DNA of 64,000 nucleotides from Diprion similis (taxonomy: Eukaryota; Arthropoda; Insecta; Hymenoptera; Diprionidae). Positions 9,141-64,000 of the stretch are shown piece after piece (position 1 is the stretch's first letter; each line of letters starts with the position of its first letter). The notes below the pieces were generated by a model. The model did not search any database and was not told where the DNA came from. It was given only the letters and a program-made list of their open reading frames with translations. A program made the translations under genes and the position numbers. Where the stretch lies: assembly GCF_021155765.1 (NCBI RefSeq), contig NC_060114.1, forward strand, positions 19,512,501 to 19,576,500, given 5' to 3'.

Positions 9141-9197
9141 AGGAGGAGGAGGAGGAGGAGGAGGAGGAGGAGGAGGAGGAGGAGGAGGAGGAGGAGG
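9141..9197. repeat. GGA trinucleotide microsatellite
   Basis: About 19 uninterrupted GGA units in gene-free sequence. The purine-only strand could form G-rich secondary structure. Confidence 0.95.
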
Positions 9198-38563: not shown

Positions 38564-41178
38564 TCAGAAGCTGTAAAATTCATTTGTCCATAAAGCCTCG
38601 ATGCTTTTATGAAGATCAAAATTAATGACGCCGAGGTACACATAGTAGACCGATAATCTAACTAGCGACCACTGTCTCTCCAACGAAACCAACCACCTCG
38701 ACAGCGACGTTTTACACAACTTCTGCTTCTCGTCGTATACTGAATGGACACAGCATTTCGACATTTCTATGAATGCAGACATTCTGGAAAAGAAATACAG
38801 TAATTGAGATATCAAAGACGCTCCAATCTCCTGACCTGAAATAAGGATATCCGTAATCCTTACACATGCTTAGGAGTTTTGATGGAATTACCTGGCCTGA
38901 GTTTTGAGAGTGTGTTCTATGCCCCGCATCAGATCATTGGTTTTTAAAACAAGGAGCATTTGCCTATTAACTCGTTCGAGCACTTCGCTAATTTGGGGTA
39001 AAACGTTGGGAAGTTCCTCCTGAAAAGCGTCTCTCTGAAAGATTAAAAAATCGGTGGTAAAATTGATCCGATAGATTGGTAGAATAACAAATCAGCAATC
39101 AAATCCATATCACATACCTCGCTATCGGTGAACTTCGTCTTTTGAATACCCGCCATTATTGTATCCCAACTTCGCCCAGATACCATGCAAACAAGTAGTC
39201 CGTACAGATCGCCGACGCCAAGAGTCTCTGCGTATTTCCGCATCTGTACTCTGTCACCGTTCAATATTGCGAGCCACAGCTTGGCATACTCCCACCGGAA
39301 TTGATCAGAAAGTGTCTGGAACAGGGAATGAAACGGAAGATAGGACAACATATTTAGGACATATGACGACAGAGTCAAGTGGCGCTTACCGCGTATAAGC
39401 CGTGATCCAGCAGCACAATTTCTGCCTCGTGATCCTTGTTTCTTATCAGGATATTTCCGGGGTGAGGATCGGAGTGGACGAAACCGTCAACAAATATCAT
39501 ACGACTATAGAGCCGTCCGAGTTTACCGCTAACTTCGTACGGGTTCACGTTATGCTCCTTAAGGTAGTTGACGTCGTTAACGTGCCCACCTTCGAGAAAT
39601 TCCATTGTCAGAACTCTAGATGACGATAACTCCCAGAATATGTTTGGAACCTGAGGATGAAATTTGTGAAAAAACAGTCGATATTGGAGCGCACTGAGAA
39701 AATTTTTGAAGAAAAAATGGCAAGTTTCTACCTTCAGCCAATGGAAATCCTTGAAGAGACTCTTGACCTTCTCTGCATTTCTTCCTTCAAGGGTGAAGTC
39801 TAGTTCCTGAGGTATATTTTTTTTTGATTCATCCACTATCCAGTCAAACTTAAAGTCTGGGAAGACCCACGACGTTATCTTCACGAGAGCTGCCATTGTC
39901 TTGATGTCGATGTAAGAGTTGGACTTTACAGCTCTGAAAAGATCAATGTCGATAATGAAAATTAAGATCGCTAAACTCATTCGTTACATTCTTAATTTTT
40001 CTCACCTGTGCTGCACCTTTACCGCAACCAATCTTCCATCGCGAAGCACGGCTTTATGAACTTGGGCAAGACTGGCCGTACCCAAGGGAACAGGTTCAAT
40101 CGATTCAAATATTTCATAAGCCTAAAACAGATGCAAGAGATGTTTATACCTGTTAGAAAAGCATTAAATAAGCATTAAATACGCATATTCTACTCACGTC
40201 CTTTTTGAAATCCTCTTCTATCACAATCAGGACATCGGAAAAGGAAGACTGGGGAGCTGAGCTGTGTAATATTCTCAGCGTATTTACGTATTCAGTAGGC
40301 AGCAGATAATCCAGTGCTCCAATGTGTTGCCCCACCTGTATAACAGAACTAGCGTTATAATCGCTGTTGCATTGCTGCTAAATACTTGGTGCTCACCTTA
40401 ATGTAGACACCCTTGTTAGCACAACAGAGATCCAGAAGTTTTTGAGCACCGTATAGATGGACTTGAGATTTAAGCTTTGCATACTCAGGAGACTCTTTGT
40501 CAAGTTTGCCTGAATAGAGCTTTTTTTTGTAATGTGTTCCAATTTGAAAAACCTGGAACAATGAAAATCTAGAATTATGATTATGACTATTCCTGTTCTC
40601 AAAAAGAATGATATCGCACAGCCACATATTCTGGCTAAACTTTGAAGGGTTTAAACCTTTGGAAATAGATTCTCCTAAAGATGGAGGACGTGTTAAAAAT
40701 TTGTTGTTACTGCTATACGTTACAGCATCTTTTTTTCTACTTTATACAAGCATTCGATAGTTTTAATTCAAAATCAAACGCGAAGAAAAAAACATTAGAT
40801 ACCTAAACTGAGGAGAAAGTTAGAAATATTTACGCACTCGGAATTCCTTCAAGACCTCTACATTTGAATTTAACGGATCGGAATTTCTGTTTCAGGCATA
40901 CATTACAATTACAAATACTTCCATAGATTTCATACAAGATATTCCACTAATTGCTAGTACCGTAAGGATCAAGTACTCCGTTTCTTTCCCACAATATTCC
41001 GTGACACCCTTTCCCGCGCATTGGCGCGCATACCAATCATACTTACGGTAAGTGCAGCTCTCGTAAGTCGAACGACGCCGATCGCCCCCACATCGTATTC
41101 ATTGGCCCTGAGCGAGGCTAGAGTGCCGATAACAGCGCCCCCGGTGGCAGTGAGGGTAACTAAGCGGCGCATAGACAT
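38564..41178 (-). CDS. ADCK1: AarF domain-containing kinase 1 (ADCK1, UbiB-type atypical kinase)
   Basis: Mitochondrial atypical protein kinase-like protein of the ADCK/COQ8/UbiB family; animal ADCK1 affects cristae and lipid homeostasis. Nine exons: 41178-41047, 40552-40397, 40335-40198, 40121-40006, 39933-39732, 39650-39390, 39315-39118, 39034-38892, 38783-38564 (GT-AG), 521 residues (human about 525). A hydrophobic N-terminal segment (about 6-24) probably anchors or targets it. Family motifs are KxGQ (K96-Q99) with GALDYLLP, the Ala-rich-loop equivalent GTASLAQVH (156-164), VAVK (K177), the catalytic loop HSDPHPGN (D309, N314) and DHG (D330) in place of DFG. It is tail-to-tail with WDTC1. 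An acceptor-like TTTCAG just 5' of the ATG suggests a 5' untranslated intron. Confidence 0.95.
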
Positions 41179-41748: not shown

Positions 41749-42210
41749 GTTTGATAATCATTAACATCAGTTTTGATTTAAGATGAGACAAAGATTTCCA
41801 ATTTGTTCCTGATTATGTTATAATGATCATACATTAAGGGGAGAATACAATCGCAGTAGATATGTAGAAGAATATATATTATATATTTAAATGAATGTAT
41901 ATTCAGTTATCTATATTTATAATCAATAATGATAATAATAATAATACACGTAAGAAGTTCTCATTTGTGAAAAGATAAATCATCATATGTTTTTCTTGTC
42001 TTGCTTATCATGAAGATCAATAAGTTTTTATCGGACTTAGAAAACATCAAATTGATAAGAATGACTGTGTGTTACACCTTACAGACAGCAAAAGGCCCAT
42101 ACAATATGCACATAAGAATTTTTCGCCTTATAAATAACAATACAATATCCTATAATAAAGTATAAAAAATATTCTGGTCGCTGAGAAACATTTGCTGTTC
42201 TCCATGCCTG

Positions 42211-44297
<2,087 letters not shown>

Positions 44298-44650: not shown

Positions 44651-45138
44651 CTCGAGAAACGTTGAAATTTTGATTTCTAGGAGATCCCAGTTGTCTTCTT
44701 TGATTTCCCAAGGGTTCAATTGACCTGGAAAGGGTCGTACAGATCCATTCTGAGATGAAGAAGTTTGCTCTTAAAATGGCGAAAGATGTAATCAAGGCTG
44801 ACCCTTTTGGTTGAAGCTTATCTTCGTAACTCCTCTGTTGTTAGCCCTACGATCTTTTGAATGTCTTTCTCGCGTTCCTGGGGGTCCAATTAGTGGGAAC
44901 TGGGTCCTTCAAAACGATTCTGAGATAGAAAATTTCCGAACTCTGAAACTCGTAAAAAAGCACGGCTAACCGCTTTGGATTTTTCAGTCAAAATTTGGCC
45001 GATTTGGAAAAGTATTAGAAGTGACTTTGTAATGCACTATATCGACGTAATTTCGCGAGAGGAATCGACTATGCACAGTCCAAATACGCTGCGAGCAACG
45101 TATCAAGAGTTACGGCCAAAAAATGAAATATTTTCTTT
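44651..45138. repeat. Diverged left edge of the satellite array
   Basis: Two degraded monomers precede the regular array. The first (about 44651-44820) matches only the first half of the consensus (GGGTTCAATTGACC, TGATGTAATC-like, AAGGCTGACCC) and then stops. The second (44826-45138, 313 bp) aligns along its full length with many substitutions. Similarity to the array rises from left to right. Confidence 0.8.
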
Positions 45139-46242
45139 GTAATTCCTCTGCTGTTGGTCTCACGATATTTTCGATGTCTTTTTTGCATTCCTGAGGGTCT
45201 AGTTAGTCGGAAAAGGGTCCTGCAAAACGATTCCCAGACGGAAAGTTTGGAGCTCCAAAAATCGCAAAAAAGGAAGGCTAACCCCTTTGGATTTTTTCAG
45301 TCAAAATTTGGCCGATTTCAAAAAGTATTAAGAGTGACTTTGTCATGCACTATATCGACGTAATTTTGCGAGAGGAATCGACTGCACGCAGTCCGAATAC
45401 GCTGCGAGCAACGTATCAAGAGTTACGGCCAAAAAATGAAAAATTTTCTTTGTAATTTCTCTGCTGTTGGTCTCACGATATTTTCGATGTCTTTTTCGCA
45501 TTCCTGAGGGTCAAATTAGTCGGAAAAGGGTCCTGCAAAACGATTCCCAGACGAAAAGTTTTGGAGCTCCAAAAATCGCAAAAAAGCAAGGCTAACCCCT
45601 TTGGATTTTTTCAGTCAAAATTTGGCCGATTTTAAAAAGTATTAAAAGTGACTTTGTGATGCACTATATCGACGTAATTTTGCGAGAGGAATCGACTGCG
45701 CGCAGTCCGAATACGCTGCGAGCAACGTATCAAGAGTTACGGCCAAAAAATGAAAAATTTTCTTTGTAATTTCTCTGCTGTTGGTCTCACGATATTTTCG
45801 ATGTCTTTTTCGCATTCCTGAGGGTCAAATTAGTCGGAAAAGGGTCCTGCAAAACGATTCCCAGACGAAAAGTTTTGGAGCTCCAAAAATCGCAAAAAAG
45901 CAAGGCTAACCCCTTTGGATTTTTTCAGTCAAAATTTGGCCGATTTTAAAAAGTATTAAAAGTGACTTTGTGATGCACTATATCGACGTAATTTTGCGAG
46001 AGGAATCGACTGCGCGCAGTCCGAATACGCTGCGAGCAACGTATCAAGAGTTACGGCCAAAAAATGAAAAATTTTCTTTGTAATTCCTCTGCTGTTGGTC
46101 TCACGATATTTTTGATGTCTTTTTCGCATTCCTGAGGGTCAAATTAGTCGGAAAAGGGTCCTGCAAAACGATTCCCAGACGAAAAGTTTTGGAGCTATAA
46201 AAATCGCAAAAAAGCAAGGCTAACCCCTTTGGATTTTTTCAG

Positions 46243-48407
46243 TCTATTTATAACAGATTTCGGAAAATACTGGAATCGATTTGTTCATACCCTATTTCGA
46301 CGTAATTTTGCGAAAGGATTTCATTGCGCACAGTCATGACACACTGCAAGCAATGAAACCGAACTCACCGCTGAAAAACATCAAATTTGCACTGGGTTTT
46401 CATAGAGATGGAGAACAAAAATTACAAACTCATAACTACAAAGTTTCAGTTTCCGTTTATTTATCATGTCTTAGTCATAGTACAAGTGATCAGGTGTCAG
46501 TGTATACTACTCTACCAAGTTTCTAAATAGTATGATATAATATCTTATTCTAATACATTGTACTGATAATGATATATTATACCAAAAATTATTATAATAT
46601 CATATAATATATTGGTGCTACTATTTCATGTAATCTGGATTAAAATGAATAATAAATAAATTTCTCCGTATTTTCTGCGTATCTTCTCAGCTATTGGTCC
46701 TATTATTCTTTGAATGCCTTCCTCACAATCCATAGGATTCAATTAGCATAGAATTAAAGAGTCGTTTGAGTCGATTCCGAAACGGCAAGTCTTTCGCTCG
46801 GAAAAGAACGAAGGCTGACCCCTTTGGATTTTTTCAGTCGAAATTCGGCCGATTATGAGAAATATTTAGAGTAACTTCGAGATGCACTATATCGACGTAA
46901 TTTTGCGAGAGGAATCGACTGCGCACAGTCCGAATACGCTGCGAGCAACGTATCAAGAGTTACGACCAAAAAATGAAAAATTTTCTTTGTAATTCCTCTG
47001 CTGTTGGTCTCAAGATATTTTCGATGTCTTTTTCGCATTCCTGAGGGTCAAATTAGTCGGAAAAGGGTCCTGCAAAACGATTCCCAGACGAAAAGTTTTG
47101 GAGCTCCAAAAATCGCAGAAAAGCAAGGCTTACCCCTTTGGATTTTTTCAGTCAAAATTTGGCCGATTTCAAAAAGTATTGAAAGTGACTTTGTGATGCA
47201 CTATATCGACGTCATTTTGCGAGAGGAATCGACTGCGCACAGTCCGAATACGCTGCGAGCAACGTATCAAGAGTTACGGCCAAAAAATGGAAAATTTTCT
47301 TTGTAATTTCTCTGCTGTTGGTCTCACGATATTTTCGATGTCTTTTTCGCATTCCTGAGGGTCAAATTAGTCGGAAAAGGGTCCTGCAAAACGATTCCCA
47401 GACGAAAAGTTTTGGAGCTATAAAAATCGCAAAAAAGCAAGGCTAACCCCTTTGGATTTTTTCAGTCAAAATTTGGCCGATTTCAAAAAGTATTAAAAGT
47501 GACTTTGTCATGCACTATATCGACGTAATTTTGCGAGAGGAATCGACTGCACGCAGTCCGAATACGCTGCGAGCAACGTATCAAGAGTTACGGCCAAAAA
47601 ATGAAAAATTTTCTTTGTAATTTCTCTGCTGTTGGTCTCACGATATTTTCGATGTCTTTTTCGCATTCCTGAGGGTCAAATTAGTCGGAAAAGGGTCCTG
47701 CAAAACGATTCCCAGACGAAAAGTTTTGGAGCTCCAAAAATCGCAAAAAAGCAAGGCTAACCCCTTTGGATTTTTTCAGTCAAAATTTGGCCGATTTTAA
47801 AAAGTATTAAAAGTGACTTTGTCATGCACTATATCGACGTAATTTTGCGAGAGGAATCGACTGCACGCAGTCCGAATACGCTGCGAGCAACGTATCAAGA
47901 GTTACGGCCAAAAAATGAAAAATTTTCTTTGTAATTCCTCTGCTGTTGGTCTCACGATATTTTCGATGTCTTTTTCGCATTCCTGAGGGTCAAATTAGTC
48001 GGAAAAGGGTCCTGCAAAACGATTCCCAGACGAAAAGTTTTGGAGCTCCAAAAATCGCAAAAAAGCAAGGCTTACCCCTTTGGATTTTTTCAGTCAAAAT
48101 TTGGCCGATTTCAAAAAGTATTAAAAGTGACTTTGTGATGCACTATATCGACGTAATTTTGCGAGAGGAATCGACTGCGCGCAGTCCGAATACGCTGCGA
48201 GCAACGTATCAAGAGTTACGGCCAAAAACTGAAAATTTTTTTTTGTAATTCCTCTGCTGTTGGTCTCACGATATTTTCGATGTCTTTTTCGCATTCCTGA
48301 GGGTCAAATTAGTCGGAAAAGGGTCCTGCAAAACGATTCCCAGACGAAAAGTTTTGGAGCTATAAAAATCGCAAAAAAGCAAGGCTAACCCCTTTGGATT
48401 TTTTCAG
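46243..48407. repeat. Higher-order repeat unit H1 (2165 bp)
   Basis: Spacer block 46243-46988, then full monomers at 46989, 47303, 47617 and 47931 and a 163-bp half monomer. The spacer block has a diverged second half of a monomer, an AT-rich core of about 290 bp (roughly 46390-46670) and one diverged full monomer. The spacer is of the normal (N) type. Confidence 0.95.
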
Positions 48408-50572
48408 TCTATTTATAACAGATTTCGGAAAATACTGGAATCGATTTGTTCATACCCTATTTCGACGTAATTTTGCGAAAGGATTTCATTGCGCACAGTC
48501 ATGACACACTGCAAGCAATGAAACCGAACTCACCGCTGAAAAACATCAAATTTGCACTGGGTTTTCATAGAGATGGAGAACAAAAATTACAAACTCATAA
48601 CTACAAAGTTTCAGTTTCCGTTTATTTATCATGTCTTAGTCATAGTACAAGTGATCAGGTGTCAGTGTATACTACTCTACCAAGTTTCTAAATAGTATGA
48701 TATAATATCTTATTCTAATACATTGTACTGATAATGATATATTATACCAAAAATTATTATAATATCATATAATATATTGGTGCTACTATTTCATGTAATC
48801 TGGATTAAAATGAATAATAAATAAATTTCTCCGTATTTTCTGCGTATCTTCTCAGCTATTGGTCCTATTATTCTTTGAATGCCTTCCTCACAATCCATAG
48901 GATTCAATTAGCATAGAATTAAAGAGTCGTTTGAGTCGATTCCGAAACGGCAAGTCTTTCGCTCGGAAAAGAACGAAGGCTGACCCCTTTGGATTTTTTC
49001 AGTCGAAATTCGGCCGATTATGAGAAATATTTAGAGTAACTTCGAGATGCACTATATCGACGTAATTTTGCGAGAGGAATCGACTGCGCACAGTCCGAAT
49101 ACGCTGCGAGCAACGTATCAAGAGTTACGACCAAAAAATGAAAAATTTTCTTTGTAATTCCTCTGCTGTTGGTCTCAAGATATTTTCGATGTCTTTTTCG
49201 CATTCCTGAGGGTCAAATTAGTCGGAAAAGGGTCCTGCAAAACGATTCCCAGACGAAAAGTTTTGGAGCTCCAAAAATCGCAGAAAAGCAAGGCTTACCC
49301 CTTTGGATTTTTTCAGTCAAAATTTGGCCGATTTCAAAAAGTATTGAAAGTGACTTTGTGATGCACTATATCGACGTCATTTTGCGAGAGGAATCGACTG
49401 CGCACAGTCCGAATACGCTGCGAGCAACGTATCAAGAGTTACGGCCAAAAAATGGAAAATTTTCTTTGTAATTTCTCTGCTGTTGGTCTCACGATATTTT
49501 CGATGTCTTTTTCGCATTCCTGAGGGTCAAATTAGTCGGAAAAGGGTCCTGCAAAACGATTCCCAGACGAAAAGTTTTGGAGCTATAAAAATCGCAAAAA
49601 AGCAAGGCTAACCCCTTTGGATTTTTTCAGTCAAAATTTGGCCGATTTCAAAAAGTATTAAAAGTGACTTTGTCATGCACTATATCGACGTAATTTTGCG
49701 AGAGGAATCGACTGCACGCAGTCCGAATACGCTGCGAGCAACGTATCAAGAGTTACGGCCAAAAAATGAAAAATTTTCTTTGTAATTTCTCTGCTGTTGG
49801 TCTCACGATATTTTCGATGTCTTTTTCGCATTCCTGAGGGTCAAATTAGTCGGAAAAGGGTCCTGCAAAACGATTCCCAGACGAAAAGTTTTGGAGCTCC
49901 AAAAATCGCAAAAAAGCAAGGCTAACCCCTTTGGATTTTTTCAGTCAAAATTTGGCCGATTTCAAAAAGTATTAAAAGTGACTTTGTCATGCACTATATC
50001 GACGTAATTTTGCGAGAGGAATCGACTGCACGCAGTCCGAATACGCTGCGAGCAACGTATCAAGAGTTACGGCCAAAAAATGAAAAATTTTCTTTGTAAA
50101 TTCTGTGCTGTTGGTCTCACGATATTTTTGATGTCTTTTTCGCATTCCTGAGGGTCAAATTAGTCGGAAAAGGGTCCTGCAAAACGATTCCCAGACGAAA
50201 AGTTTTGGAGCTCCAAAAATCGCAAAAAAGCAAGGCTAACCCCTTTGGATTTTTTCAGTCAAAATTTGGCCGATTTCAAAAAGTATTAAAAGTGACTTTG
50301 TCATGCACTATATCGACGTAATTTTGCGAGAGGAATCGGCTGCACGCAGTCCGAATACGCTGCGAGCAACGTATCAAGAGTTACGGCCAAAAAATGAAAA
50401 ATTTTCTTTGTAATTCCTCTGCTGTTGGTCTCACGATATTTTTGATGTCTTTTTCGCATTCCTGAGGGTCAAATTAGTCGGAAAAGGGTCCTGCAAAACG
50501 ATTCCCAGACGAAAAGTTTTGGAGCTATAAAAATCGCAAAAAAGCAAGGCTAACCCCTTTGGATTTTTTCAG
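48408..50572. repeat. Higher-order repeat unit H2 (2165 bp)
   Basis: N-type spacer 48408-49153, then monomers at 49154, 49468, 49782 and 50096 and a half monomer from 50410. The monomer at 50096 carries private changes (GTAAATTCTGTGCTG, and ATCGGCTGC near 50334) that recur 7437 bp later in H5. Confidence 0.95.
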
Positions 50573-53365
50573 TCTATTTATAACAGATTTCGGAAAATAC
50601 TGGAATCGATTTGTTCATACCCTATTTCGACGTAATTTTGCGAAAGGATTTCATTGCGCACAGTCATGACACACTGCAAGCAATGAAACCGAACTCACCG
50701 CTGAAAAACATCAAATTTGCACTGGGTTTTCATAGAGATGGAGAACAAAAATTACAAACTCATAACTACAAAGTTTCAGTTTCCGTTTATTTATCATGTC
50801 TTAGTCATAGTACAAGTGATCAGGTGTCAGTGTATACTACTCTACCAAGTTTCTAAATAGTATGATATAATATCTTATTCTAATACATTGTACTGATAAT
50901 GATATATTATACCAAAAATTATTATAATATCATATAATATATTGGTGCTACTATTTCATGTAATCTGGATTAAAATCAATCATAAATAAATTTCTCCGTA
51001 TTTTCTGCGTATCTTCTCAGCTATTGGTCCTATTATTTTTTGAATGCCTTCCTCACAATCCATAGGATTCAATTAGCATAGAATTAAAGAGTCGTTTGAG
51101 TCGATTCCGAAACGGCAAGTCTTTCGCTCGGAAAAGAACGAAGGCTGACCCCTTTGGATTTTTTCAGTCGAAATTCGGCCGATTATGAGAAATATTTAGA
51201 GTAACTTCGAGATGCACTATATCGACGTAATTTTGCGAGAGGAATCGACTGCGCACAGTCCGAATACGCTGCGAGCAACGTATCAAGAGTTACGACCAAA
51301 AAATGAAAAATTTTCTTTGTAATTCCTCTGCTGTTGGTCTCAAGATATTTTCGATGTCTTTTTCGCATTCCTGAGGGTCAAATTAGTCGGAAAAGGGTCC
51401 TGCAAAACGATTCCCAGACGAAAAGTTTTGGAGCTCCAAAAATCGCAGAAAAGCAAGGCTTACCCCTTTGGATTTTTTCAGTCAAAATTTGGCCGATTTC
51501 AAAAAGTATTGAAAGTGACTTTGTGATGCACTATATCGACGTCATTTTGCGAGAGGAATCGACTGCGCACAGTCCGAATACGCTGCGAGCAACGTATCAA
51601 GAGTTACGGCCAAAAAATGGAAAATTTTCTTTGTAATTTCTCTGCTGTTGGTCTCACGATATTTTCGATGTCTTTTTCGCATTCCTGAGGGTCAAATTAG
51701 TCGAAAAAGGGTCCTGCAAAACGATTCCCAGACGAAAAGTTTTGGAGCTCCAAAAATCGCAAAAAAGCAAGGCTAACCCCTTTGGATTTTTTCAGTCAAA
51801 ATTTGGCCGATTTCAAAAAGTATTAAAAGTGACTTTGTCATGCACTATATCGACGTAATTTTGCGAGAGGAATCGACTGCACGCAGTCCGAATACGCTGC
51901 GAGCAACGTATCAAGAGTTACGGCCAAAAAATGAAAAATTTTCTTTGTAATTTCTCTGCTGTTGGTCTCACGATATTTTCGATGTCTTTTTCGCATTCCT
52001 GAGGGTCAAATTAGTCGGAAAAGGGTCCTGCAAAACGATTCCCAGACGTAAAGTTTTGGAGCTCCAAAAATCGCAAAAAAGCAAGGCTAACCCCTTTGGA
52101 TTTTTTCAGTCAAAATTTGGCCGATTTCAAAAAGTATTAAAAGTGACTTTGTCATGCACCATATCGACGTAATTTTGCGAGAGGAATCGACTGCACGCAG
52201 TCCGAATACGCTGCGAGCAACGTATCAAGAGTTACGGCCAAAAAATGAAAAATTTTCTTTGTAATTTCTCTGCTGTTGGTCTCACGATATTTTCGATGTC
52301 TTTTTCGCATTCCTGAGGGTCAAATTAGTCGGAAAAGGGTCCTGCAAAACGATTCCCAGACGAAAAGTTTTGGAGCTATAAAAATCGCAAAAAAGCAAGG
52401 CTAACCCCTTTGGATTTTTTCAGTCAAAATTTGGCCGATTTCAAAAAGTATTAAAAGTGACTTTGTCATGCACTATATCGACGTAATTTTGCGAGAGGAA
52501 TCGACTGCACGCAGTCCGAATACGCTGCGAGCAACGTATCAAGAGTTACGGCCAAAAAATGAAAAATTTTCTTTGTAATTTCTCTGCTGTTGGTCTCACG
52601 ATATTTTCGATGTCTTTTTCGCATTCCTGAGGGTCAAATTAGTCGGAAAAGGGTCCTGCAAAACGATTCCCAGACGAAAAGTTTTGGAGCTCCAAAAATC
52701 GCAAAAAAGCAAGGCTAACCCCTTTGGATTTTTTCAGTCAAAATTTGGCCGATTTCAAAAAGTATTAAAAGTGACTTTGTCATGCACTATATCGACGTAA
52801 TTTTGCGAGAGGAATCGACTGCACGCAGTCCGAATACGCTGCGAGCAACGTATCAAGAGTTACGGCCAAAAAATGAAAAATTTTCTTTGTAATTCCTCTG
52901 CTGTTGGTCTCACGATATTTTCGATGTCTTTTTCGCATTCCTGAGGGTCAAATTAGTCGGAAAAGGGTCCTGCAAAACGATTCCCAGACGAAAAGTTTTG
53001 GAGCTCCAAAAATCGCAAAAAAGCAAGGCTTACCCCTTTGGATTTTTTCAGTCAAAATTTGGCCGATTTCAAAAAGTATTAAAAGTGACTTTGTGATGCA
53101 CTATATCGACGTAATTTTGCGAGAGGAATCGACTGCGCGCAGTCCGAATACGCTGCGAGCAACGTATCAAGAGTTACGGCCAAAAACTGAAAATTTTTTT
53201 TTGTAATTCCTCTGCTGTTGGTCTCACGATATTTTCGATGTCTTTTTCGCATTCCTGAGGGTCAAATTAGTCGGAAAAGGGTCCTGCAAAACGATTCCCA
53301 GACGAAAAGTTTTGGAGCTATAAAAATCGCAAAAAAGCAAGGCTAACCCCTTTGGATTTTTTCAG
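50573..53365. repeat. Higher-order repeat unit H3 (2793 bp)
   Basis: V-type spacer 50573-51318 (TCAATCATAAAT instead of TGAATAATAAAT, and a T in place of C in TATTATTCTTTG), then monomers at 51319, 51633, 51947, 52261, 52575 and 52889 and a half monomer. The second monomer has TCGAAAAAGGG. Confidence 0.95.
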
Positions 53366-55844
53366 TCTATTTATAACAGATTTCGGAAAATACTGGAATC
53401 GATTTGTTCATACCCTATTTCGACGTAATTTTGCGAAAGGATTTCATTGCGCACAGTCATGACACACTGCAAGCAATGAAACCGAACTCACCGCTGAAAA
53501 ACATCAAATTTGCACTGGGTTTTCATAGAGATGGAGAACAAAAATTACAAACTCATAACTACAAAGTTTCAGTTTCCGTTTATTTATCATGTCTTAGTCA
53601 TAGTACAAGTGATCAGGTGTCAGTGTATACTACTCTACCAAGTTTCTAAATAGTATGATATAATATCTTATTCTAATACATTGTACTGATAATGATATAT
53701 TATACCAAAAATTATTATAATATCATATAATATATTGGTGCTACTATTTCATGTAATCTGGATTAAAATGAATAATAAATAAATTTCTCCGTATTTTCTG
53801 CGTATCTTCTCAGCTATTGGTCCTATTATTCTTTGAATGCCTTCCTCACAATCCATAGGATTCAATTAGCATAGAATTAAAGAGTCGTTTGAGTCGATTC
53901 CGAAACGGCAAGTCTTTCGCTCGGAAAAGAACGAAGGCTGACCCCTTTGGATTTTTTCAGTCGAAATTCGGCCGATTATGAGAAATATTTAGAGTAACTT
54001 CGAGATGCACTATATCGACGTAATTTTGAGAGAGGAATCGACTGCGCACAGTCCGAATACGCTGCGAGCAACGTATCAAGAGTTACGACCAAAAAATGAA
54101 AAATTTTCTTTGTAATTCCTCTGCTGTTGGTCTCACGATATTTTCGATGTCTTTTTCGCATTCCTGAGGGTCAAATTAGTCGGAAAAGGGTCCTGCAAAA
54201 CGATTCCCAGACGAAAAGTTTTGGAGCTCCAAAAATCGCAAAAAAGCAAGGCTAACCCCTTTGGATTTTTTCAGTCAAAATTTGGCTGATTTCAAAAAGT
54301 ATTAAAAGTGACTTTGTCATGCACTATATCGACGTAATTTTGCGAGAGGAATCGACTGCACGCAGTCCGAATACGCTGCGAGCAACGTATCAAGAGTTAC
54401 GGCCAAAAAATGAAAAATTTTCTTTGTAATTCCTCTGCTGTTGGTCTCACGATATTTTCGATGTCTTTTTCGCATTCCTGAGGGTCAAATTAGTCGGAAA
54501 AGGGTCCTGCAAAACGATTCCCAGACGAAAAGTTTTGGAGCTCCAAAAATCGCAAAAAAGCAAGGCTTACCCCTTTGGATTTTTTCAGTCAAAATTTGGC
54601 CGATTTCAAAAAGTATTAAAAGTGACTTTGTGATGCACTATATCGACGTAATTTTGCGAGAGGAATCGACTGCGCGCAGTCCGAATACGCTGCGAGCAAC
54701 GTATCAAGAGTTACGGCCAAAAACTGAAAATTTTTTTTTGTAATTCCTCTGCTGTTGGTCTCACGATATTTTCGATGTCTTTTTCGCATTCCTGAGGGTC
54801 AAATTAGTCGGAAAAGGGTCCTGCAAAACGATTCCCAGACGAAAAGTTTTGGAGCTATAAAAATCGCAAAAAAGCAAGGCTAACCCCTTTGGATTTTTTC
54901 AGTCAAAATTTGGCCGATTTCAAAAAGTATTAAAAGTGACTTTGTCATGCACTATATCGACGTAATTTTGCGAGAGGAATCGACTGCACGCAGTCCGAAT
55001 ACGCTGCGAGCAACGTATCAAGAGTTACGGCCAAAAAATGAAAAATTTTCTTTGTAATTTCTCTGCTGTTGGTCTCACGATATTTTCGATGTCTTTTTCG
55101 CATTCCTGAGGGTCAAATTAGTCGGAAAAGGGTCCTGCAAAACGATTCCCAGACGAAAAGTTTTGGAGCTCCAAAAATCGCAAAAAAGCAAGGCTAACCC
55201 CTTTGGATTTTTTCAGTCAAAATTTGGCCGATTTTAAAAAGTATTAAAAGTGACTTTGTCATGCACTATATCGACGTAATTTTGCGAGAGGAATCGACTG
55301 CACGCAGTCCGAATACGCTGCGAGCAACGTATCAAGAGTTACGGCCAAAAAATGAAAAATTTTCTTTGTAATTCCTCTGCTGTTGGTCTCACGATATTTT
55401 CGATGTCTTTTTCGCATTCCTGAGGGTCAAATTAGTCGGAAAAGGGTCCTGCAAAACGATTCCCAGACGAAAAGTTTTGGAGCTCCAAAAATCGCAAAAA
55501 AGCAAGGCTTACCCCTTTGGATTTTTTCAGTCAAAATTTGGCCGATTTCAAAAAGTATTAAAAGTGACTTTGTGATGCACTATATCGACGTAATTTTGCG
55601 AGAGGAATCGACTGCGCGCAGTCCGAATACGCTGCGAGCAACGTATCAAGAGTTACGGCCAAAAACTGAAAATTTTTTTTTGTAATTCCTCTGCTGTTGG
55701 TCTCACGATATTTTCGATGTCTTTTTCGCATTCCTGAGGGTCAAATTAGTCGGAAAAGGGTCCTGCAAAACGATTCCCAGACGAAAAGTTTTGGAGCTAT
55801 AAAAATCGCAAAAAAGCAAGGCTAACCCCTTTGGATTTTTTCAG
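53366..55844. repeat. Higher-order repeat unit H4 (2479 bp)
   Basis: N-type spacer 53366-54111 with a private TTTTGAGAGAGG change, then monomers at 54112, 54426, 54740, 55054 and 55368 and a half monomer. The monomers at 54426 and 55368 are of the same variant (AAACTGAAAATTTT near their ends), 942 bp apart. Confidence 0.95.
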
Positions 55845-58009
55845 TCTATTTATAACAGATTTCGGAAAATACTGGAATCGATTTGTTCATACCCTATTTC
55901 GACGTAATTTTGCGAAAGGATTTCATTGCGCACAGTCATGACACACTGCAAGCAATGAAACCGAACTCACCGCTGAAAAACATCAAATTTGCACTGGGTT
56001 TTCATAGAGATGGAGAACAAAAATTACAAACTCATAACTACAAAGTTTCAGTTTCCGTTTATTTATCATGTCTTAGTCATAGTACAAGTGATCAGGTGTC
56101 AGTGTATACTACTCTACCAAGTTTCTAAATAGTATGATATAATATCTTATTCTAATACATTGTACTGATAATGATATATTATACCAAAAATTATTATAAT
56201 ATCATATAATATATTGGTGCTACTATTTCATGTAATCTGGATTAAAATGAATAATAAATAAATTTCTCCGTATTTTCTGCGTATCTTCTCAGCTATTGGT
56301 CCTATTATTCTTTGAATGCCTTCCTCACAATCCATAGGATTCAATTAGCATAGAATTAAAGAGTCGTTTGAGTCGATTCCGAAACGGCAAGTCTTTCGCT
56401 CGGAAAAGAACGAAGGCTGACCCCTTTGGATTTTTTCAGTCGAAATTCGGCCGATTATGAGAAATATTTAGAGTAACTTCGAGATGCACTATATCGACGT
56501 AATTTTGCGAGAGGAATCGACTGCGCACAGTCCGAATACGCTGCGAGCAACGTATCAAGAGTTACGACCAAAAAATGAAAAATTTTCTTTGTAATTCCTC
56601 TGCTGTTGGTCTCAAGATATTTTCGATGTCTTTTTCGCATTCCTGAGGGTCAAATTAGTCGGAAAAGGGTCCTGCAAAACGATTCCCAGACGAAAAGTTT
56701 TGGAGCTCCAAAAATCGCAGAAAAGCAAGGCTTACCCCTTTGGATTTTTTCAGTCAAAATTTGGCCGATTTCAAAAAGTATTGAAAGTGACTTTGTGATG
56801 CACTATATCGACGTCATTTTGCGAGAGGAATCGACTGCGCACAGTCCGAATACGCTGCGAGCAACGTATCAAGAGTTACGGCCAAAAAATGGAAAATTTT
56901 CTTTGTAATTTCTCTGCTGTTGGTCTCACGATATTTTCGATGTCTTTTTCGCATTCCTGAGGGTCAAATTAGTCGGAAAAGGGTCCTGCAAAACGATTCC
57001 CAGACGAAAAGTTTTGGAGCTATAAAAATCGCAAAAAAGCAAGGCTAACCCCTTTGGATTTTTTCAGTCAAAATTTGGCCGATTTCAAAAAGTATTAAAA
57101 GTGACTTTGTCATACACTATATCGACGTAATTTTGCGAGAGGAATCGACTGCACGCAGTCCGAATACGCTGCGAGCAACGTATCAAGAGTTACGGCCAAA
57201 AAATGAAAAATTTTCTTTGTAATTTCTCTGCTGTTGGTCTCACGATATTTTCGATGTCTTTTTCGCATTCCTGAGGGTCAAATTAGTCGGAAAAGGGTCC
57301 TGCAAAACGATTCCCAGACGAAAAGTTTTGGAGCTCCAAAAATCGCAAAAAAGCAAGGCTAACCCCTTTGGATTTTTTCAGTCAAAATTTGGCCGATTTC
57401 AAAAAGTATTAAAAGTGACTTTGTCATGCACTATATCGACGTAATTTTGCGAGAGGAATCGACTGCACGCAGTCCGAATACGCTGCGAGCAACGTATCAA
57501 GAGTTACGGCCAAAAAATGAAAAATTTTCTTTGTAAATTCTGTGCTGTTGGTCTCACGATATTTTTGATGTCTTTTTCGCATTCCTGAGGGTCAAATTAG
57601 TCGGAAAAGGGTCCTGCAAAACGATTCCCAGACGAAAAGTTTTGGAGCTCCAAAAATCGCAAAAAAGCAAGGCTAACCCCTTTGGATTTTTTCAGTCAAA
57701 ATTTGGCCGATTTCAAAAAGTATTAAAAGTGACTTTGTCATGCACTATATCGACGTAATTTTGCGAGAGGAATCGGCTGCACGCAGTCCGAATACGCTGC
57801 GAGCAACGTATCAAGAGTTACGGCCAAAAAATGAAAAATTTTCTTTGTAATTCCTCTGCTGTTGGTCTCACGATATTTTTGATGTCTTTTTCGCATTCCT
57901 GAGGGTCAAATTAGTCGGAAAAGGGTCCTGCAAAACGATTCCCAGACGAAAAGTTTTGGAGCTATAAAAATCGCAAAAAAGCAAGGCTAACCCCTTTGGA
58001 TTTTTTCAG
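55845..58009. repeat. Higher-order repeat unit H5 (2165 bp), copy of H2
   Basis: N-type spacer, monomers at 56591, 56905, 57219 and 57533 and a half monomer. It matches H2 at an offset of 7437 bp, including the private variants; one difference seen is CATACACTAT near 57111 instead of CATGCACTAT. Confidence 0.95.
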
Positions 58010-60802
58010 TCTATTTATAACAGATTTCGGAAAATACTGGAATCGATTTGTTCATACCCTATTTCGACGTAATTTTGCGAAAGGATTTCATTGCGCACAG
58101 TCATGACACACTGCAAGCAATGAAACCGAACTCACCGCTGAAAAACATCAAATTTGCACTGGGTTTTCATAGAGATGGAGAACAAAAATTACAAACTCAT
58201 AACTACAAAGTTTCAGTTTCCGTTTATTTATCATGTCTTAGTCATAGTACAAGTGATCAGGTGTCAGTGTATACTACTCTACCAAGTTTCTAAATAGTAT
58301 GATATAATATCTTATTCTAATACATTGTACTGATAATGATATATTATACCAAAAATTATTATAATATCATATAATATATTGGTGCTACTATTTCATGTAA
58401 TCTGGATTAAAATCAATCATAAATAAATTTCTCCGTATTTTCTGCGTATCTTCTCAGCTATTGGTCCTATTATTTTTTGAATGCCTTCCTCACAATCCAT
58501 AGGATTCAATTAGCATAGAATTAAAGAGTCGTTTGAGTCGATTCCGAAACGGCAAGTCTTTCGCTCGGAAAAGAACGAAGGCTGACCCCTTTGGATTTTT
58601 TCAGTCGAAATTCGGCCGATTATGAGAAATATTTAGAGTAACTTCGAGATGCACTATATCGACGTAATTTTGCGAGAGGAATCGACTGCGCACAGTCCGA
58701 ATACGCTGCGAGCAACGTATCAAGAGTTACGACCAAAAAATGAAAAATTTTCTTTGTAATTCCTCTGCTGTTGGTCTCAAGATATTTTCGATGTCTTTTT
58801 CGCATTCCTGAGGGTCAAATTAGTCGGAAAAGGGTCCTGCAAAACGATTCCCAGACGAAAAGTTTTGGAGCTCCAAAAATCGCAGAAAAGCAAGGCTTAC
58901 CCCTTTGGATTTTTTCAGTCAAAATTTGGCCGATTTCAAAAAGTATTGAAAGTGACTTTGTGATGCACTATATCGACGTCATTTTGCGAGAGGAATCGAC
59001 TGCGCACAGTCCGAATACGCTGCGAGCAACGTATCAAGAGTTACGGCCAAAAAATGGAAAATTTTCTTTGTAATTTCTCTGCTGTTGGTCTCACGATATT
59101 TTCGATGTCTTTTTCGCATTCCTGAGGGTCAAATTAGTCGAAAAAGGGTCCTGCAAAACGATTCCCAGACGAAAAGTTTTGGAGCTCCAAAAATCGCAAA
59201 AAAGCAAGGCTAACCCCTTTGGATTTTTTCAGTCAAAATTTGGCCGATTTCAAAAAGTATTAAAAGTGACTTTGTCATGCACTATATCGACGTAATTTTG
59301 CGAGAGGAATCGACTGCACGCAGTCCGAATACGCTGCGAGCAACGTATCAAGAGTTACGGCCAAAAAATGAAAAATTTTCTTTGTAATTTCTCTGCTGTT
59401 GGTCTCACGATATTTTCGATGTCTTTTTCGCATTCCTGAGGGTCAAATTAGTCGGAAAAGGGTCCTGCAAAACGATTCCCAGACGTAAAGTTTTGGAGCT
59501 CCAAAAATCGCAAAAAAGCAAGGCTAACCCCTTTGGATTTTTTCAGTCAAAATTTGGCCGATTTCAAAAAGTATTAAAAGTGACTTTGTCATGCACCATA
59601 TCGACGTAATTTTGCGAGAGGAATCGACTGCACGCAGTCCGAATACGCTGCGAGCAACGTATCAAGAGTTACGGCCAAAAAATGAAAAATTTTCTTTGTA
59701 ATTTCTCTGCTGTTGGTCTCACGATATTTTCGATGTCTTTTTCGCATTCCTGAGGGTCAAATTAGTCGGAAAAGGGTCCTGCAAAACGATTCCCAGACGA
59801 AAAGTTTTGGAGCTATAAAAATCGCAAAAAAGCAAGGCTAACCCCTTTGGATTTTTTCAGTCAAAATTTGGCCGATTTCAAAAAGTATTAAAAGTGACTT
59901 TGTCATGCACTATATCGACGTAATTTTGCGAGAGGAATCGACTGCACGCAGTCCGAATACGCTGCGAGCAACGTATCAAGAGTTACGGCCAAAAAATGAA
60001 AAATTTTCTTTGTAATTTCTCTGCTGTTGGTCTCACGATATTTTCGATGTCTTTTTCGCATTCCTGAGGGTCAAATTAGTCGGAAAAGGGTCCTGCAAAA
60101 CGATTCCCAGACGAAAAGTTTTGGAGCTCCAAAAATCGCAAAAAAGCAAGGCTAACCCCTTTGGATTTTTTCAGTCAAAATTTGGCCGATTTCAAAAAGT
60201 ATTAAAAGTGACTTTGTCATGCACTATATCGACGTAATTTTGCGAGAGGAATCGACTGCACGCAGTCCGAATACGCTGCGAGCAACGTATCAAGAGTTAC
60301 GGCCAAAAAATGAAAAATTTTCTTTGTAATTCCTCTGCTGTTGGTCTCACGATATTTTCGATGTCTTTTTCGCATTCCTGAGGGTCAAATTAGTCGGAAA
60401 AGGGTCCTGCAAAACGATTCCCAGACGAAAAGTTTTGGAGCTCCAAAAATCGCAAAAAAGCAAGGCTTACCCCTTTGGATTTTTTCAGTCAAAATTTGGC
60501 CGATTTCAAAAAGTATTAAAAGTGACTTTGTGATGCACTATATCGACGTAATTTTGCGAGAGGAATCGACTGCGCGCAGTCCGAATACGCTGCGAGCAAC
60601 GTATCAAGAGTTACGGCCAAAAACTGAAAATTTTTTTTTGTAATTCCTCTGCTGTTGGTCTCACGATATTTTCGATGTCTTTTTCGCATTCCTGAGGGTC
60701 AAATTAGTCGGAAAAGGGTCCTGCAAAACGATTCCCAGACGAAAAGTTTTGGAGCTATAAAAATCGCAAAAAAGCAAGGCTAACCCCTTTGGATTTTTTC
60801 AG
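58010..60802. repeat. Higher-order repeat unit H6 (2793 bp), copy of H3
   Basis: V-type spacer, monomers at 58756, 59070, 59384, 59698, 60012 and 60326 and a half monomer. Private variants of H3 (GACGTAAAGTT, TGCACCATATCG) recur here exactly 7437 bp later. Confidence 0.95.
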
Positions 60803-63281
60803 TCTATTTATAACAGATTTCGGAAAATACTGGAATCGATTTGTTCATACCCTATTTCGACGTAATTTTGCGAAAGGATTTCATTGCGCACAGTCATGAC
60901 ACACTGCAAGCAATGAAACCGAACTCACCGCTGAAAAACATCAAATTTGCACTGGGTTTTCATAGAGATGGAGAACAAAAATTACAAACTCATAACTACA
61001 AAGTTTCAGTTTCCGTTTATTTATCATGTCTTAGTCATAGTACAAGTGATCAGGTGTCAGTGTATACTACTCTACCAAGTTTCTAAATAGTATGATATAA
61101 TATCTTATTCTAATACATTGTACTGATAATGATATATTATACCAAAAATTATTATAATATCATATAATATATTGGTGCTACTATTTCATGTAATCTGGAT
61201 TAAAATGAATAATAAATAAATTTCTCCGTATTTTCTGCGTATCTTCTCAGCTATTGGTCCTATTATTCTTTGAATGCCTTCCTCACAATCCATAGGATTC
61301 AATTAGCATAGAATTAAAGAGTCGTTTGAGTCGATTCCGAAACGGCAAGTCTTTCGCTCGGAAAAGAACGAAGGCTGACCCCTTTGGATTTTTTCAGTCG
61401 AAATTCGGCCGATTATGAGAAATATTTAGAGTAACTTCGAGATGCACTATATCGACGTAATTTTGCGAGAGGAATCGACTGCGCACAGTCCGAATACGCT
61501 GCGAGCAACGTATCAAGAGTTACGACCAAAAAATGAAAAATTTTCTTTGTAATTCCTCTGCTGTTGGTCTCAAGATATTTTCGATGTCTTTTTCGCATTC
61601 CTGAGGGTCAAATTAGTCGGAAAAGGGTCCTGCAAAACGATTCCCAGACGAAAAGTTTTGGAGCTCCAAAAATCGCAGAAAAGCAAGGCTTACCCCTTTG
61701 GATTTTTTCAGTCAAAATTTGGCCGATTTCAAAAAGTATTGAAAGTGACTTTGTGATGCACTATATCGACGTCATTTTGCGAGAGGAATCGACTGCGCAC
61801 AGTCCGAATACGCTGCGAGCAACGTATCAAGAGTTACGGCCAAAAAATGGAAAATTTTCTTTGTAATTTCTCTGCTGTTGGTCTCACGATATTTTCGATG
61901 TCTTTTTCGCATTCCTGAGGGTCAAATTAGTCGAAAAAGGGTCCTGCAAAACGATTCCCAGACGAAAAGTTTTGGAGCTCCAAAAATCGCAAAAAAGCAA
62001 GGCTAACCCCTTTGGATTTTTTCAGTCAAAATTTGGCCGATTTCAAAAAGTATTAAAAGTGACTTTGTCATGCACTATATCGACGTAATTTTGCGAGAGG
62101 AATCGACTGCACGCAGTCCGAATACGCTGCGAGCAACGTATCAAGAGTTACGGCCAAAAAATGAAAAATTTTCTTTGTAATTCCTCTGCTGTTGGTCTCA
62201 CGATATTTTCAATGTCTTTTTCGCATTCCTGAGGGTCAAATTAGTCGGAAAAGGGTCCTGCAAAACGATTCCCAGACGAAAAGTTTTGGAGCTATAAAAA
62301 TCGCAAAAAAGCAAGGCTAACCCCTTTGGATTTTTTCAGTCAAAATTTGGCCGATTTCAAAAAGTATTAAAAGTGACTTTGTCATGCACTATATCGACGT
62401 AATTTTGCGAGAGGAATCGACTGCACGCAGTCCGAATACGCTGCGAGCAACGTATCAAGAGTTACGGCCAAAAAATGAAAAATTTTCTTTGTAATTTCTC
62501 TGCTGTTGGTCTCACGATATTTTCGATGTCTTTTTCGCATTCCTGAGGGTCAAATTAGTCGGAAAAGGGTCCTGCAAAACGATTCCCAGACGAAAAGTTT
62601 TGGAGCTCCAAAAATCGCAAAAAAGCAAGGCTAACCCCTTTGGATTTTTTCAGTCAAAATTTGGCCGATTTCAAAAAGTATTAAAAGTGACTTTGTCATG
62701 CACTATATCGACGTAATTTTGCGAGAGGAATCGACTGCACGCAGTCCGAATACGCTGCGAGCAACGTATCAAGAGTTACGGCCAAAAAATGAAAAATTTT
62801 CTTTGTAATTCCTCTGCTGTTGGTCTCACGATATTTTCGATGTCTTTTTCGCATTCCTGAGGGTCAAATTAGTCGGAAAAGGGTCCTGCAAAACGATTCC
62901 CAGACGAAAAGTTTTGGAGCTCCAAAAATCGCAAAAAAGCAAGGCTTACCCCTTTGGATTTTTTCAGTCAAAATTTGGCCGATTTCAAAAAGTATTAAAA
63001 GTGACTTTGTGATGCACTATATCGACGTAATTTTGCGAGAGGAATCGACTGCGCGCAGTCCGAATACGCTGCGAGCAACGTATCAAGAGTTACGGCCAAA
63101 AACTGAAAATTTTTTTTTGTAATTCCTCTGCTGTTGGTCTCACGATATTTTCGATGTCTTTTTCGCATTCCTGAGGGTCAAATTAGTCGGAAAAGGGTCC
63201 TGCAAAACGATTCCCAGACGAAAAGTTTTGGAGCTATAAAAATCGCAAAAAAGCAAGGCTAACCCCTTTGGATTTTTTCAG
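60803..63281. repeat. Higher-order repeat unit H7 (2479 bp), mosaic copy of H4
   Basis: N-type spacer, monomers at 61549, 61863, 62177, 62491 and 62805 and a half monomer. The last three monomers correspond to H4, but the first two match the beginning of the V-type units H3 and H6 (TCTCAAGATA, then TCGAAAAAGGG). Confidence 0.93.
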
Positions 63282-64000
63282 TCTATTTATAACAGATTTC
63301 GGAAAATACTGGAATCGATTTGTTCATACCCTATTTCGACGTAATTTTGCGAAAGGATTTCATTGCGCACAGTCATGACACACTGCAAGCAATGAAACCG
63401 AACTCACCGCTGAAAAACATCAAATTTGCACTGGGTTTTCATAGAGATGGAGAACAAAAATTACAAACTCATAACTACAAAGTTTCAGTTTCCGTTTATT
63501 TATCATGTCTTAGTCATAGTACAAGTGATCAGGTGTCAGTGTATACTACTCTACCAAGTTTCTAAATAGTATGATATAATATCTTATTCTAATACATTGT
63601 ACTGATAATGATATATTATACCAAAAATTATTATAATATCATATAATATATTGGTGCTACTATTTCATGTAATCTGGATTAAAATCAATCATAAATAAAT
63701 TTCTCCGTATTTTCTGCGTATCTTCTCAGCTATTGGTCCTATTATTTTTTGAATGCCTTCCTCACAATCCATAGGATTCAATTAGCATAGAATTAAAGAG
63801 TCGTTTGAGTCGATTCCGAAACGGCAAGTCTTTCGCTCGGAAAAGAACGAAGGCTGACCCCTTTGGATTTTTTCAGTCGAAATTCGGCCGATTATGAGAA
63901 ATATTTAGAGTAACTTCGAGATGCACTATATCGACGTAATTTTGCGAGAGGAATCGACTGCGCACAGTCCGAATACGCTGCGAGCAACGTATCAAGAGTT
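63282..64000. repeat. Higher-order repeat unit H8, start only
   Basis: Spacer block cut by the window end. It carries the V-type markers (TCAATCATAAAT, TATTATTTTTTG), although a strict 7437-bp period would put an N-type spacer here. Confidence 0.93.

What the first reader, a model, noticed from the sequence alone, without database searches (positions are those of the whole stretch)
45139..64000. Three-level nested satellite: 314-bp monomer, 2.2-2.8-kb HOR, 7437-bp super-repeat
Spacer starts fall at 46243, 48408, 50573, 53366, 55845, 58010, 60803 and 63282, so HOR lengths are 2165, 2165, 2793, 2479, 2165, 2793, 2479. The sizes differ by exactly one or two monomers. The triplet 2165-2793-2479 repeats, and private mutations (GTAAATTCTG at 50096 and 57533; ATCGGCTGC at 50334 and 57771; CACCATAT at 52157 and 59594) repeat exactly 7437 bp apart. 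Multi-monomer HORs are best known from primate centromeres; a nested HOR in an insect, if centromeric, would be notable.
Basis: seen in the sequence. Interest (0 to 1): 0.75.

Follow-up and report, generated by a model that had tools for sequence, protein, structure and literature searches.

The report
Transposon-seeded satellite array between genes
The nested tandem repeat is real, but it is a 28-kb array lying between ordinary genes, one of many scattered through this genome that grew from the inside of an old mobile element, so it is very unlikely to be a centromere.

Summary
Reading 60 kb past the window changes the meaning.

The array stops after about 9 kb (44.7 to 73.0 kb, about 28 kb). 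The triplet does not continue; the next lengths are 2793, 2793, 2165, with a second recent duplication of 5272 bp. So the "third level" is two recent overlapping tandem duplications, not a regular super-repeat.

The array lies between an ADCK1-like gene and a galactosyltransferase-like gene about 0.8 kb beyond it. I read 20 array loci of the family on eight contigs.

Two arrays lie complete inside an element with terminal inverted repeats (TIRs). The monomer/TIR junction recurs at six loci, the window's right edge among them. The HOR "spacer" is that element's core between two half-monomers.

Best reading: a euchromatic satellite grown in place from a non-autonomous DNA transposon, as described for Tetris in Drosophila virilis. 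The centromere reading is not supported. New member of a known kind.

The parts
44692..44961 (+). Degenerate monomer fragments at the left edge of the array (69% and 77% to the reference monomer)
   Evidence: blastn
44964..46244 (+). First four 314-bp monomers (93-97% to the reference monomer) plus the first 29 bases of the split monomer
46245..46810 (+). First copy of the 566-bp spacer: two diverged half-monomers flanking an AT-rich core; the core is the internal sequence of the inverted-repeat element. Eleven copies in the whole array, differing from each other by 0 or 3 bases
46245..48409 (+). HOR 1, 2165 bp, monomer types D E A A F
48410..50574 (+). HOR 2, 2165 bp, D E A G H
50575..53367 (+). 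HOR 3, 2793 bp, D E A I A A F
53368..55846 (+). HOR 4, 2479 bp, D A F A A F
55847..58011 (+). HOR 5, 2165 bp, D E A G H
58012..60804 (+). HOR 6, 2793 bp, D E A I A A F
60805..63283 (+). HOR 7, 2479 bp, D E H A A F
63284..64000 (+). HOR 8 (cut by the window end; full length 2793, D E A I A A F). HORs 9-11 and the array end at 72985 lie beyond the window, followed by an inner terminal-inverted-repeat remnant at 72991-73053
47295..54253 (+). One copy of the 7437-bp tandem duplication (matches 54732-61690 with 6 differences in 6959 bases)
57839..63052 (+). One copy of a second tandem duplication, 5272 bp (7 differences in 5214 bases; the other copy lies mostly beyond the window)
39375..39983 (-). 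Exon-sized open frame with ABC1 atypical kinase domain (ADCK1-like by my reading), nearest recognised coding sequence on the left, about 4.7 kb from the array
   Evidence: Pfam PF03109, E 1.2e-46

Best explanation
This is a short euchromatic satellite array that descends from a non-autonomous DNA transposon with terminal inverted repeats (TIRs), whose inside held about one copy of a 312-314-bp unit between its core and its right TIR. After insertion the unit was amplified in place; how the first duplication arose is open, the later growth most likely by unequal crossing-over or replication slippage. Here a stretch holding the element's core plus 5-7 monomers was amplified too, making the 2.2-2.8-kb HORs. 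Steps of one or two monomers gave the three HOR lengths. Two very recent tandem duplications of 7437 and 5272 bp then produced the apparent third level. It most likely has no centromere function. Shown: the anatomy, the dispersal, the gene flanks, the TIR-monomer junctions. Inferred: the direction (transposon to satellite), the mechanism of growth, the lack of function.
For: (1) Flanks are genic: ABC1-kinase frame on the left, a glycosyltransferase-7 frame on the right starting at about 73753, some 770 bp past the last monomer of the array. (2) The family is dispersed: 2956 motif copies with up to 3 mismatches and 0 in the reversed control; 1023 exact copies of a second form of the motif, 0 in control. 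The first 100 of these 1023, the only ones listed, fall in 22 clusters on C1-C4: 12 single places and 10 with two or more, always on one strand, and in 9 of those 10 spaced by whole multiples of 312. (3) Complete TIR-array-TIR elements: L025 (9.3 kb, 26 monomers) and L035+L036 (10.3 kb, 23 monomers, core on the right, spacer remnant on the left). (4) The inner end of the right TIR meets the monomer at position 125-139, within 0-18 bp, in the window array, L034, L035/36, L045 and L046, besides L025, which defined the query. At the window array the monomer runs to position 130 and the TIR inner end begins at 72991. (5) TIR family: 41 places with up to 2 mismatches, 0 in control; 20 of 35 matches to a longer TIR query start at the same point, query base 36-40. 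(6) The core or a piece of the spacer around it lies beside or inside 10 of the 11 arrays on C10 and C3 (the window included) that were found by similarity to the window's repeat. (7) In L025 the monomers differ by 1.9% while its two TIRs are only 81% alike over 81 bp, so the array was homogenised after insertion. (8) Duplications are recent: 6/6959 and 7/5214 differences.
Against: Of the 18 array loci examined because of monomer or spacer similarity, only 3 (window, L025, L034) show any TIR match at E up to 1e-3 in the flank read, and only L025 on both sides; flanks read were from under 0.1 to several kb, and at seven loci (L028-L034) one array end was not reached. The window keeps only about 60-140 bp of diverged inner TIR (73% over 63 bp) and no outer terminus. 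Exact 3-bp target-site duplications were seen, by eye, in 2 of 7 TIR pairs. No transposase was found in 10 of the 14 open frames listed for three elements, and the genome-wide transposase search did not complete. One TIR element read whole, L044 (585 bp), has no monomer, and in L037 the junction is interrupted. The reverse order, a transposon that captured a satellite unit, is not strictly excluded.
Confidence: 0.8

Rival explanations
1. The array is, or is part of, a centromere: a centromeric satellite with HORs as in primates.
For: HORs with near-identical repeats (spacers differ by 0-3 of 566 bases) recall alpha satellite. Some other clusters of the family span 31-38 kb.
Against: Only 28 kb, coding sequence on both sides within 5 kb and 1 kb. 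Eight other arrays were read on the same contig between 14.36 and 21.98 Mb and others on seven more contigs. Of fifteen unplaced contigs sampled for 130 bp each, eight read N; the seven that gave letters showed no monomer, and the sample of a 2.66-Mb contig resembles, by eye, that of another unplaced contig. Samples this small do not exclude monomers elsewhere in those contigs.
Confidence: 0.03
2. An ordinary satellite that arose independently and was captured by an inverted-repeat transposon, which then spread it.
For: Capture of a pre-existing tandem repeat by a MITE was proposed for miDNA4 in Xenopus (passage in PMC12628747). 15 of 18 array loci show no TIR in the flanks read.
Against: Elements with about one monomer (L045) or two thirds of one (L046) next to the TIR exist. 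The junction phase is the same at the six loci where it was read, L037 being interrupted there. The core is shared by 10 of 11 arrays on C10 and C3.
Confidence: 0.15
3. The 7437-bp super-repeat is an assembly artefact (duplicated contig ends or haplotig).
For: The copies are almost identical (6 differences in 6959); no reads available.
Against: The copies do differ at several sites, the array is gapless, and a different 5272-bp duplication overlaps it; a second array (L019) has its own 3417-bp duplication.
Confidence: 0.07

Closest known systems
Tetris / TIR-220 satellite of Drosophila virilis (PMC4079207; abstract and two sections read)
   Same: Non-coding DNA transposon with inverted repeats that holds internal tandem repeats of a few hundred bp, which expanded into kb-size satellite-like arrays.
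   Different: Tetris has 8-10 bp target duplications, repeats inside its TIRs, and its amplification is placed in beta-heterochromatin. Here the TIR is about 230 bp, the flanking triplet is often TTA or TAA, the unit lies inside next to the right TIR, the window array lies among genes, and the element core joins the repeat to make HORs. Sequence homology to Tetris was not tested.
MITE-borne tandem repeats: Xstir and miDNA4 in Xenopus (passages of PMC12628747); terMITEs (title in its reference list)
   Same: Internal tandem repeat of a miniature inverted-repeat element grows into arrays; for miDNA4 the arrays are said to lose the inverted ends later.
   Different: miDNA4 is described there as Tc1/mariner. 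HORs including the element core were not mentioned in the passages read.
Euchromatic satellites of insects: 1.688 in Drosophila, the major satellite of Tribolium (passages of PMC10048060)
   Same: Short satellite arrays among genes; homogenisation less efficient among distant, shorter arrays.
   Different: The Tribolium copies are described as a small fraction of a large pericentromeric satellite; no such block of this family was seen, though it was not searched exhaustively. Euchromatic 1.688 arrays are mostly of up to six repeats, here often tens.
Higher-order repeats in insects: Tribolium (passage in PMC7598501), Pyrgomorpha conica (title only)
   Same: Multi-monomer HORs, in Tribolium combined with extraneous sequence elements.
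   Different: Here the extraneous element is identified as the core of a TIR transposon, and the flanks hold genes.

Membership tests
Centromeric HOR satellite | HOR copies more alike than neighbouring monomers | tested here: met
   Spacers 0-3 differences in 566; monomer types differ by 4-36 of 314
Centromeric HOR satellite | Long array in a gene-poor, heterochromatic region, one main locus per chromosome | tested here: not met
   28 kb, coding sequence on both sides, nine arrays read on C10
Centromeric HOR satellite | Bound by CENP-A / CENP-C | not testable with these tools
   No ChIP data; the search for CENP-C (PF11699) in the genome did not complete
Inverted-repeat transposon with internal tandem repeats (Tetris-like) | TIRs on both sides of the array | tested here: inconclusive
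   Met in L025 and L035+L036; in the window only an inner remnant on the right, none on the left
Inverted-repeat transposon with internal tandem repeats (Tetris-like) | No coding capacity in the elements seen | tested here: met
   No transposase among 10 of the 14 open frames listed for L037, L045, L046; the only Pfam hit, TMEM62_C at E 0.0019, is below its cut-off
Inverted-repeat transposon with internal tandem repeats (Tetris-like) | Target-site duplications at the element ends | tested here: inconclusive
   Exact 3-bp direct repeats (AAA) in 2 of 7 TIR pairs (L037, L044), read by eye
PIF/Harbinger superfamily | 3-bp TWA target site (recalled from general knowledge) | tested here: inconclusive
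   TTA or TAA precedes 10 of 27 termini, background 4.0%, binomial P 4.9e-8; but no duplicated TWA was seen at both ends of one element
PIF/Harbinger superfamily | Harbinger-type DDE transposase in the genome | not tested
   Search with PF13359 was sent six times and never answered
Euchromatic satellite DNA | Tandem arrays dispersed along chromosomes among genes, more homogeneous within than between loci | tested here: met
   Genes on both sides shown for the window array only; dispersal. Mean distance 0.078 within a stretch, 0.128 between stretches on one contig, 0.259 between contigs; 21 stretches, 370 monomers

The most novel reading that the evidence does not exclude
The satellite is itself mobile: an inverted-repeat transposon that carries a multi-kilobase array as cargo (9-10 kb elements with 23-26 monomers between TIRs exist), so whole arrays have been planted near genes on many chromosomes, where some then grow their own HORs.
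Probability: 0.15. Interest if true: 0.55.

Novelty: new member of a known kind. Interest (0 to 1): 0.33.

Why it matters
It gives an assembled series in one genome, from a transposon with about one repeat unit, through TIR-bounded arrays, to a 28-kb array with HORs and no complete TIR left. HOR structure is shown to arise in a short array among genes, so HORs in an assembly should not by themselves be read as a sign of a centromere. The window array also records two recent duplications that could be used to time unequal crossing-over.

Tried and rejected
Centromere reading: rejected on size, gene flanks and dispersal. Regular third-level repeat: rejected after reading beyond the window. Structured RNA or tRNA origin of the monomer: Rfam gave 0 matches at gathering score and ARAGORN 0 genes over the window. 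A conserved protein-binding box in the monomer: a column-shuffle test gave P 0.16 for the best 20-base stretch and 0.048 for the best 36-base one, among 11 locus majority sequences, so not claimed; the significant feature is a variable stretch at monomer positions 288-307, P 0.001. Recurrent exact TSD: not established. A pattern typed for a C3 variant was wrong and found 0. Pairwise alignments failed (score 2) and were not used. Shared flanks of L017/L018 and L019 (88% over 211 and 251 bp) were seen but not resolved between segmental duplication and transposition.
Full report
What was checked. Monomers are 314 bp, the spacer starts at 46245, 48410, 50575, 53368, 55847, 58012, 60805 and 63284, and the private motifs recur 7437 bp apart. 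A structure of this kind (about 19 kb, whole monomers 93-100% identical to the reference) is far beyond chance, so no further test was made.

What lies beyond. The window is G000:C10:19512501-19576500 of a 269-Mb genome in 60 contigs. I read 60 kb further. Three more spacers follow at 66077, 68870 and 71035 (continued coordinates), and the last monomer fragment of the array ends at 72985. The HOR lengths are therefore 2165, 2165, 2793, 2479, 2165, 2793, 2479, 2793, 2793, 2165.

Structure of the array. 67 whole on-phase monomers fall into 13 types at a threshold of 3 differences. As strings the HORs read DEAAF, DEAGH, DEAIAAF, DAFAAF, DEAGH, DEAIAAF, DEHAAF, DEAIAAF, DEHIAAF, DJGGH, DKLM. Spacers are of two types, three bases apart, in the order a a b a a b a b a a b. 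The 7437-bp shift matches HORs 2-4 to 5-7, with 6 differences in 6959 bases over 47295-54253. A 5272-bp shift matches 57839-63052 to its copy with 7 differences in 5214 bases. So the third level is best read as two recent, overlapping tandem duplications; the spacer order does keep a trace of an a-a-b rhythm with one unit missing. The edges are degenerate (69-77% on the left; 79-82% for the last fragment on the right), as expected for an array homogenised from within.

Surroundings. Left of the array lie frames with adenosine deaminase domains (two frames with A_deaminase_N and one with A_deaminase), Brix, LRR1-type and ABC1-kinase domains. To the right, a frame with Glyco_transf_7N and 7C begins at about 73753. 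The array is thus intergenic, within about 4.7 kb and 0.8 kb of recognised coding sequence. Gene neighbours of the other arrays were not examined.

Distribution. A query with a HOR unit found 63 matches on C10 and C3 (8 of 1960 first-look candidates scored); with the spacer, 43 matches on C2, C3, C4, C6, C8, C9, C10 and C13 (40 of 431 scored); with a monomer, 284 matches, of which the listed ones are all on C10 (26 of 1713 scored); with a monomer of a C3 array, 71 matches on C3 and C10 (3 of 1693 scored). These counts are lower bounds by the tool's own statement. A 36-base motif with up to 3 mismatches occurs 2956 times, against 0 for the reversed control. An exact form typical of the other chromosomes occurs 1023 times (0 in control); the 100 places listed form 22 clusters on C1-C4, 12 of them single places, the two longest spanning 37.8 and 30.9 kb. 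One of the 10 clusters with more than one place, on C1 at 2.45 Mb, has a spacing that is not a whole multiple of 312. Neither motif covers all copies: the first recognises only 1 of 71 monomers from the nine loci outside the C10 and C3-terminal lineages. Twenty array loci were read in part or whole, on C2, C3, C4, C6, C8, C9, C10 and C13; the middle of one (C10:18.51 Mb) and the far ends of others were not. Fifteen unplaced contigs were sampled for 130 bp each: 8 read N, and the other 7 showed no match beyond a 14-base one.

Local homogenisation. Among 370 monomers from 21 stretches, the mean distance is 0.078 within a stretch, 0.128 between stretches on the same contig (52 pairs) and 0.259 between contigs (158 pairs). 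The same-contig figure is dominated by the ten C10 stretches (one array counted as two, its left and right ends), and C3 is mixed: its two terminal arrays are 0.062 apart but about 0.29 from the array at 14.8 Mb.

The transposon. L025 has an inverted pair just outside its array (81% over 81 bp). A search with its left TIR gave 35 matches, 20 of them starting at query base 36-40, the mark of an element end. A 20-base terminus with up to 2 mismatches has 41 places and 0 in the control. Fetched elements show the order TIR, core, monomers, TIR in L025; TIR, monomer fragment, spacer remnant, 23 monomers, spacer with core, monomer fragment, TIR in L035+L036; TIR, core, monomers in L038; about one monomer, in two pieces, beside a TIR in L045 and about two thirds of one beside a TIR in L046. 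L044, a 585-bp element, has TIRs and no monomer. The junction of TIR and monomer lies at monomer position 125-139, within 0-18 bp, in five loci other than the one that defined the query, the window among them; L037 is interrupted there. The alignment of the window's right edge with five other TIRs runs, by eye, over about 140 bp of the inner part and then gives way to degenerate monomer pieces at 73140-73291.

How often TIRs are seen. The elements in L035/36 and L037-L046 were fetched because of the TIR, so they cannot show how often arrays have TIRs. Of the 18 loci fetched for monomer or spacer similarity, or being the window, 3 show a TIR match and only L025 on both sides. Seven of the 18 (L028-L034) were themselves picked by similarity to the spacer.

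Superfamily. TTA or TAA precedes the terminus in 10 of 27 termini (background 4.0%, P 4.9e-8; if only triplets ending in A are considered, 10 of 21, P 1.8e-4). One badly mutated terminus (L039 left), one duplicate (L050) and spurious internal matches in L035 were left out. This hints at PIF/Harbinger, whose TWA target I recall from general knowledge; exact 3-bp duplications were seen in 2 of 7 pairs and were AAA. No transposase was found in 10 of 14 listed frames, and the whole-genome search did not complete. The superfamily stays open.

How it works, most likely. The basic element would be TIR, core, one unit, TIR. Once the unit was doubled, by a step not resolved here, out-of-register pairing could lengthen the run by unequal exchange. 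In the window the exchange took in the core, so that core plus 5-7 monomers became the repeating unit. Further exchanges changed HORs by one or two monomers and duplicated blocks of 7437 and 5272 bp. Another array, L019, shows its own 3417-bp duplication including the core (99.2%). In ten other arrays tested there, some only over their monomer part, no long shift was near-identical (best 0.98); L017/L018 has two cores 5929 bp apart without such a period. HOR formation is therefore occasional in this family. In L025 the monomers are 98% alike while the TIRs are 81% alike, so homogenisation came after insertion there.

Comparison with the literature. Tetris of Drosophila virilis is the nearest case (PMC4079207: abstract and the sections on its characterisation and on large arrays). 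A review describes MITE-borne repeats that become satellites (passages of PMC12628747) and another euchromatic satellites (passages of PMC10048060). HORs in Tribolium are mentioned in a passage of PMC7598501; the original paper was not held. The listings of four searches (HORs in euchromatin of insects; Harbinger with internal tandem repeats; MITE and Tetris; foldback with HOR) showed no title or abstract opening describing HORs built from a transposon core; this is not proof of absence.

Verdict. Observation confirmed; nested HOR partly supported; centromere not supported. A well-preserved example of a known process, of modest interest.

Noticed in passing
window 21428-22303 (-) and 24495-25343 (+): Two open frames with the adenosine deaminase N-terminal domain lie divergently, 2.2 kb apart, probably a duplicated growth-factor-type adenosine deaminase pair.
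   Followed up: no
window 9141-9197: A perfect AGG microsatellite of 19 copies.
   Followed up: no
L017:1131-1341 and L018:1591-1840; L019 (both array flanks): The arrays at C10:16.73 Mb and 17.29 Mb share both flanks (88% over 211 and 251 bp), so they look like copies of one block, in opposite orientation.
   Followed up: partly
G000:C1:4512582-4531301: Exact motif places in this array repeat with a shift of 9983 bp three times, suggesting another block duplication.
   Followed up: partly
L058, L060 (C15, C17); L059, L062 (C16, C19): 130-base samples of unplaced contigs suggest two other repeats, each shared by two contigs, one of them 2.66 Mb long; candidates for the real pericentromeric satellites. 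The sharing was judged by eye.
   Followed up: no
window 42001-44000: A local GC-skew dip of -0.158, the strongest in the 2-kb table, just left of the array.
   Followed up: no
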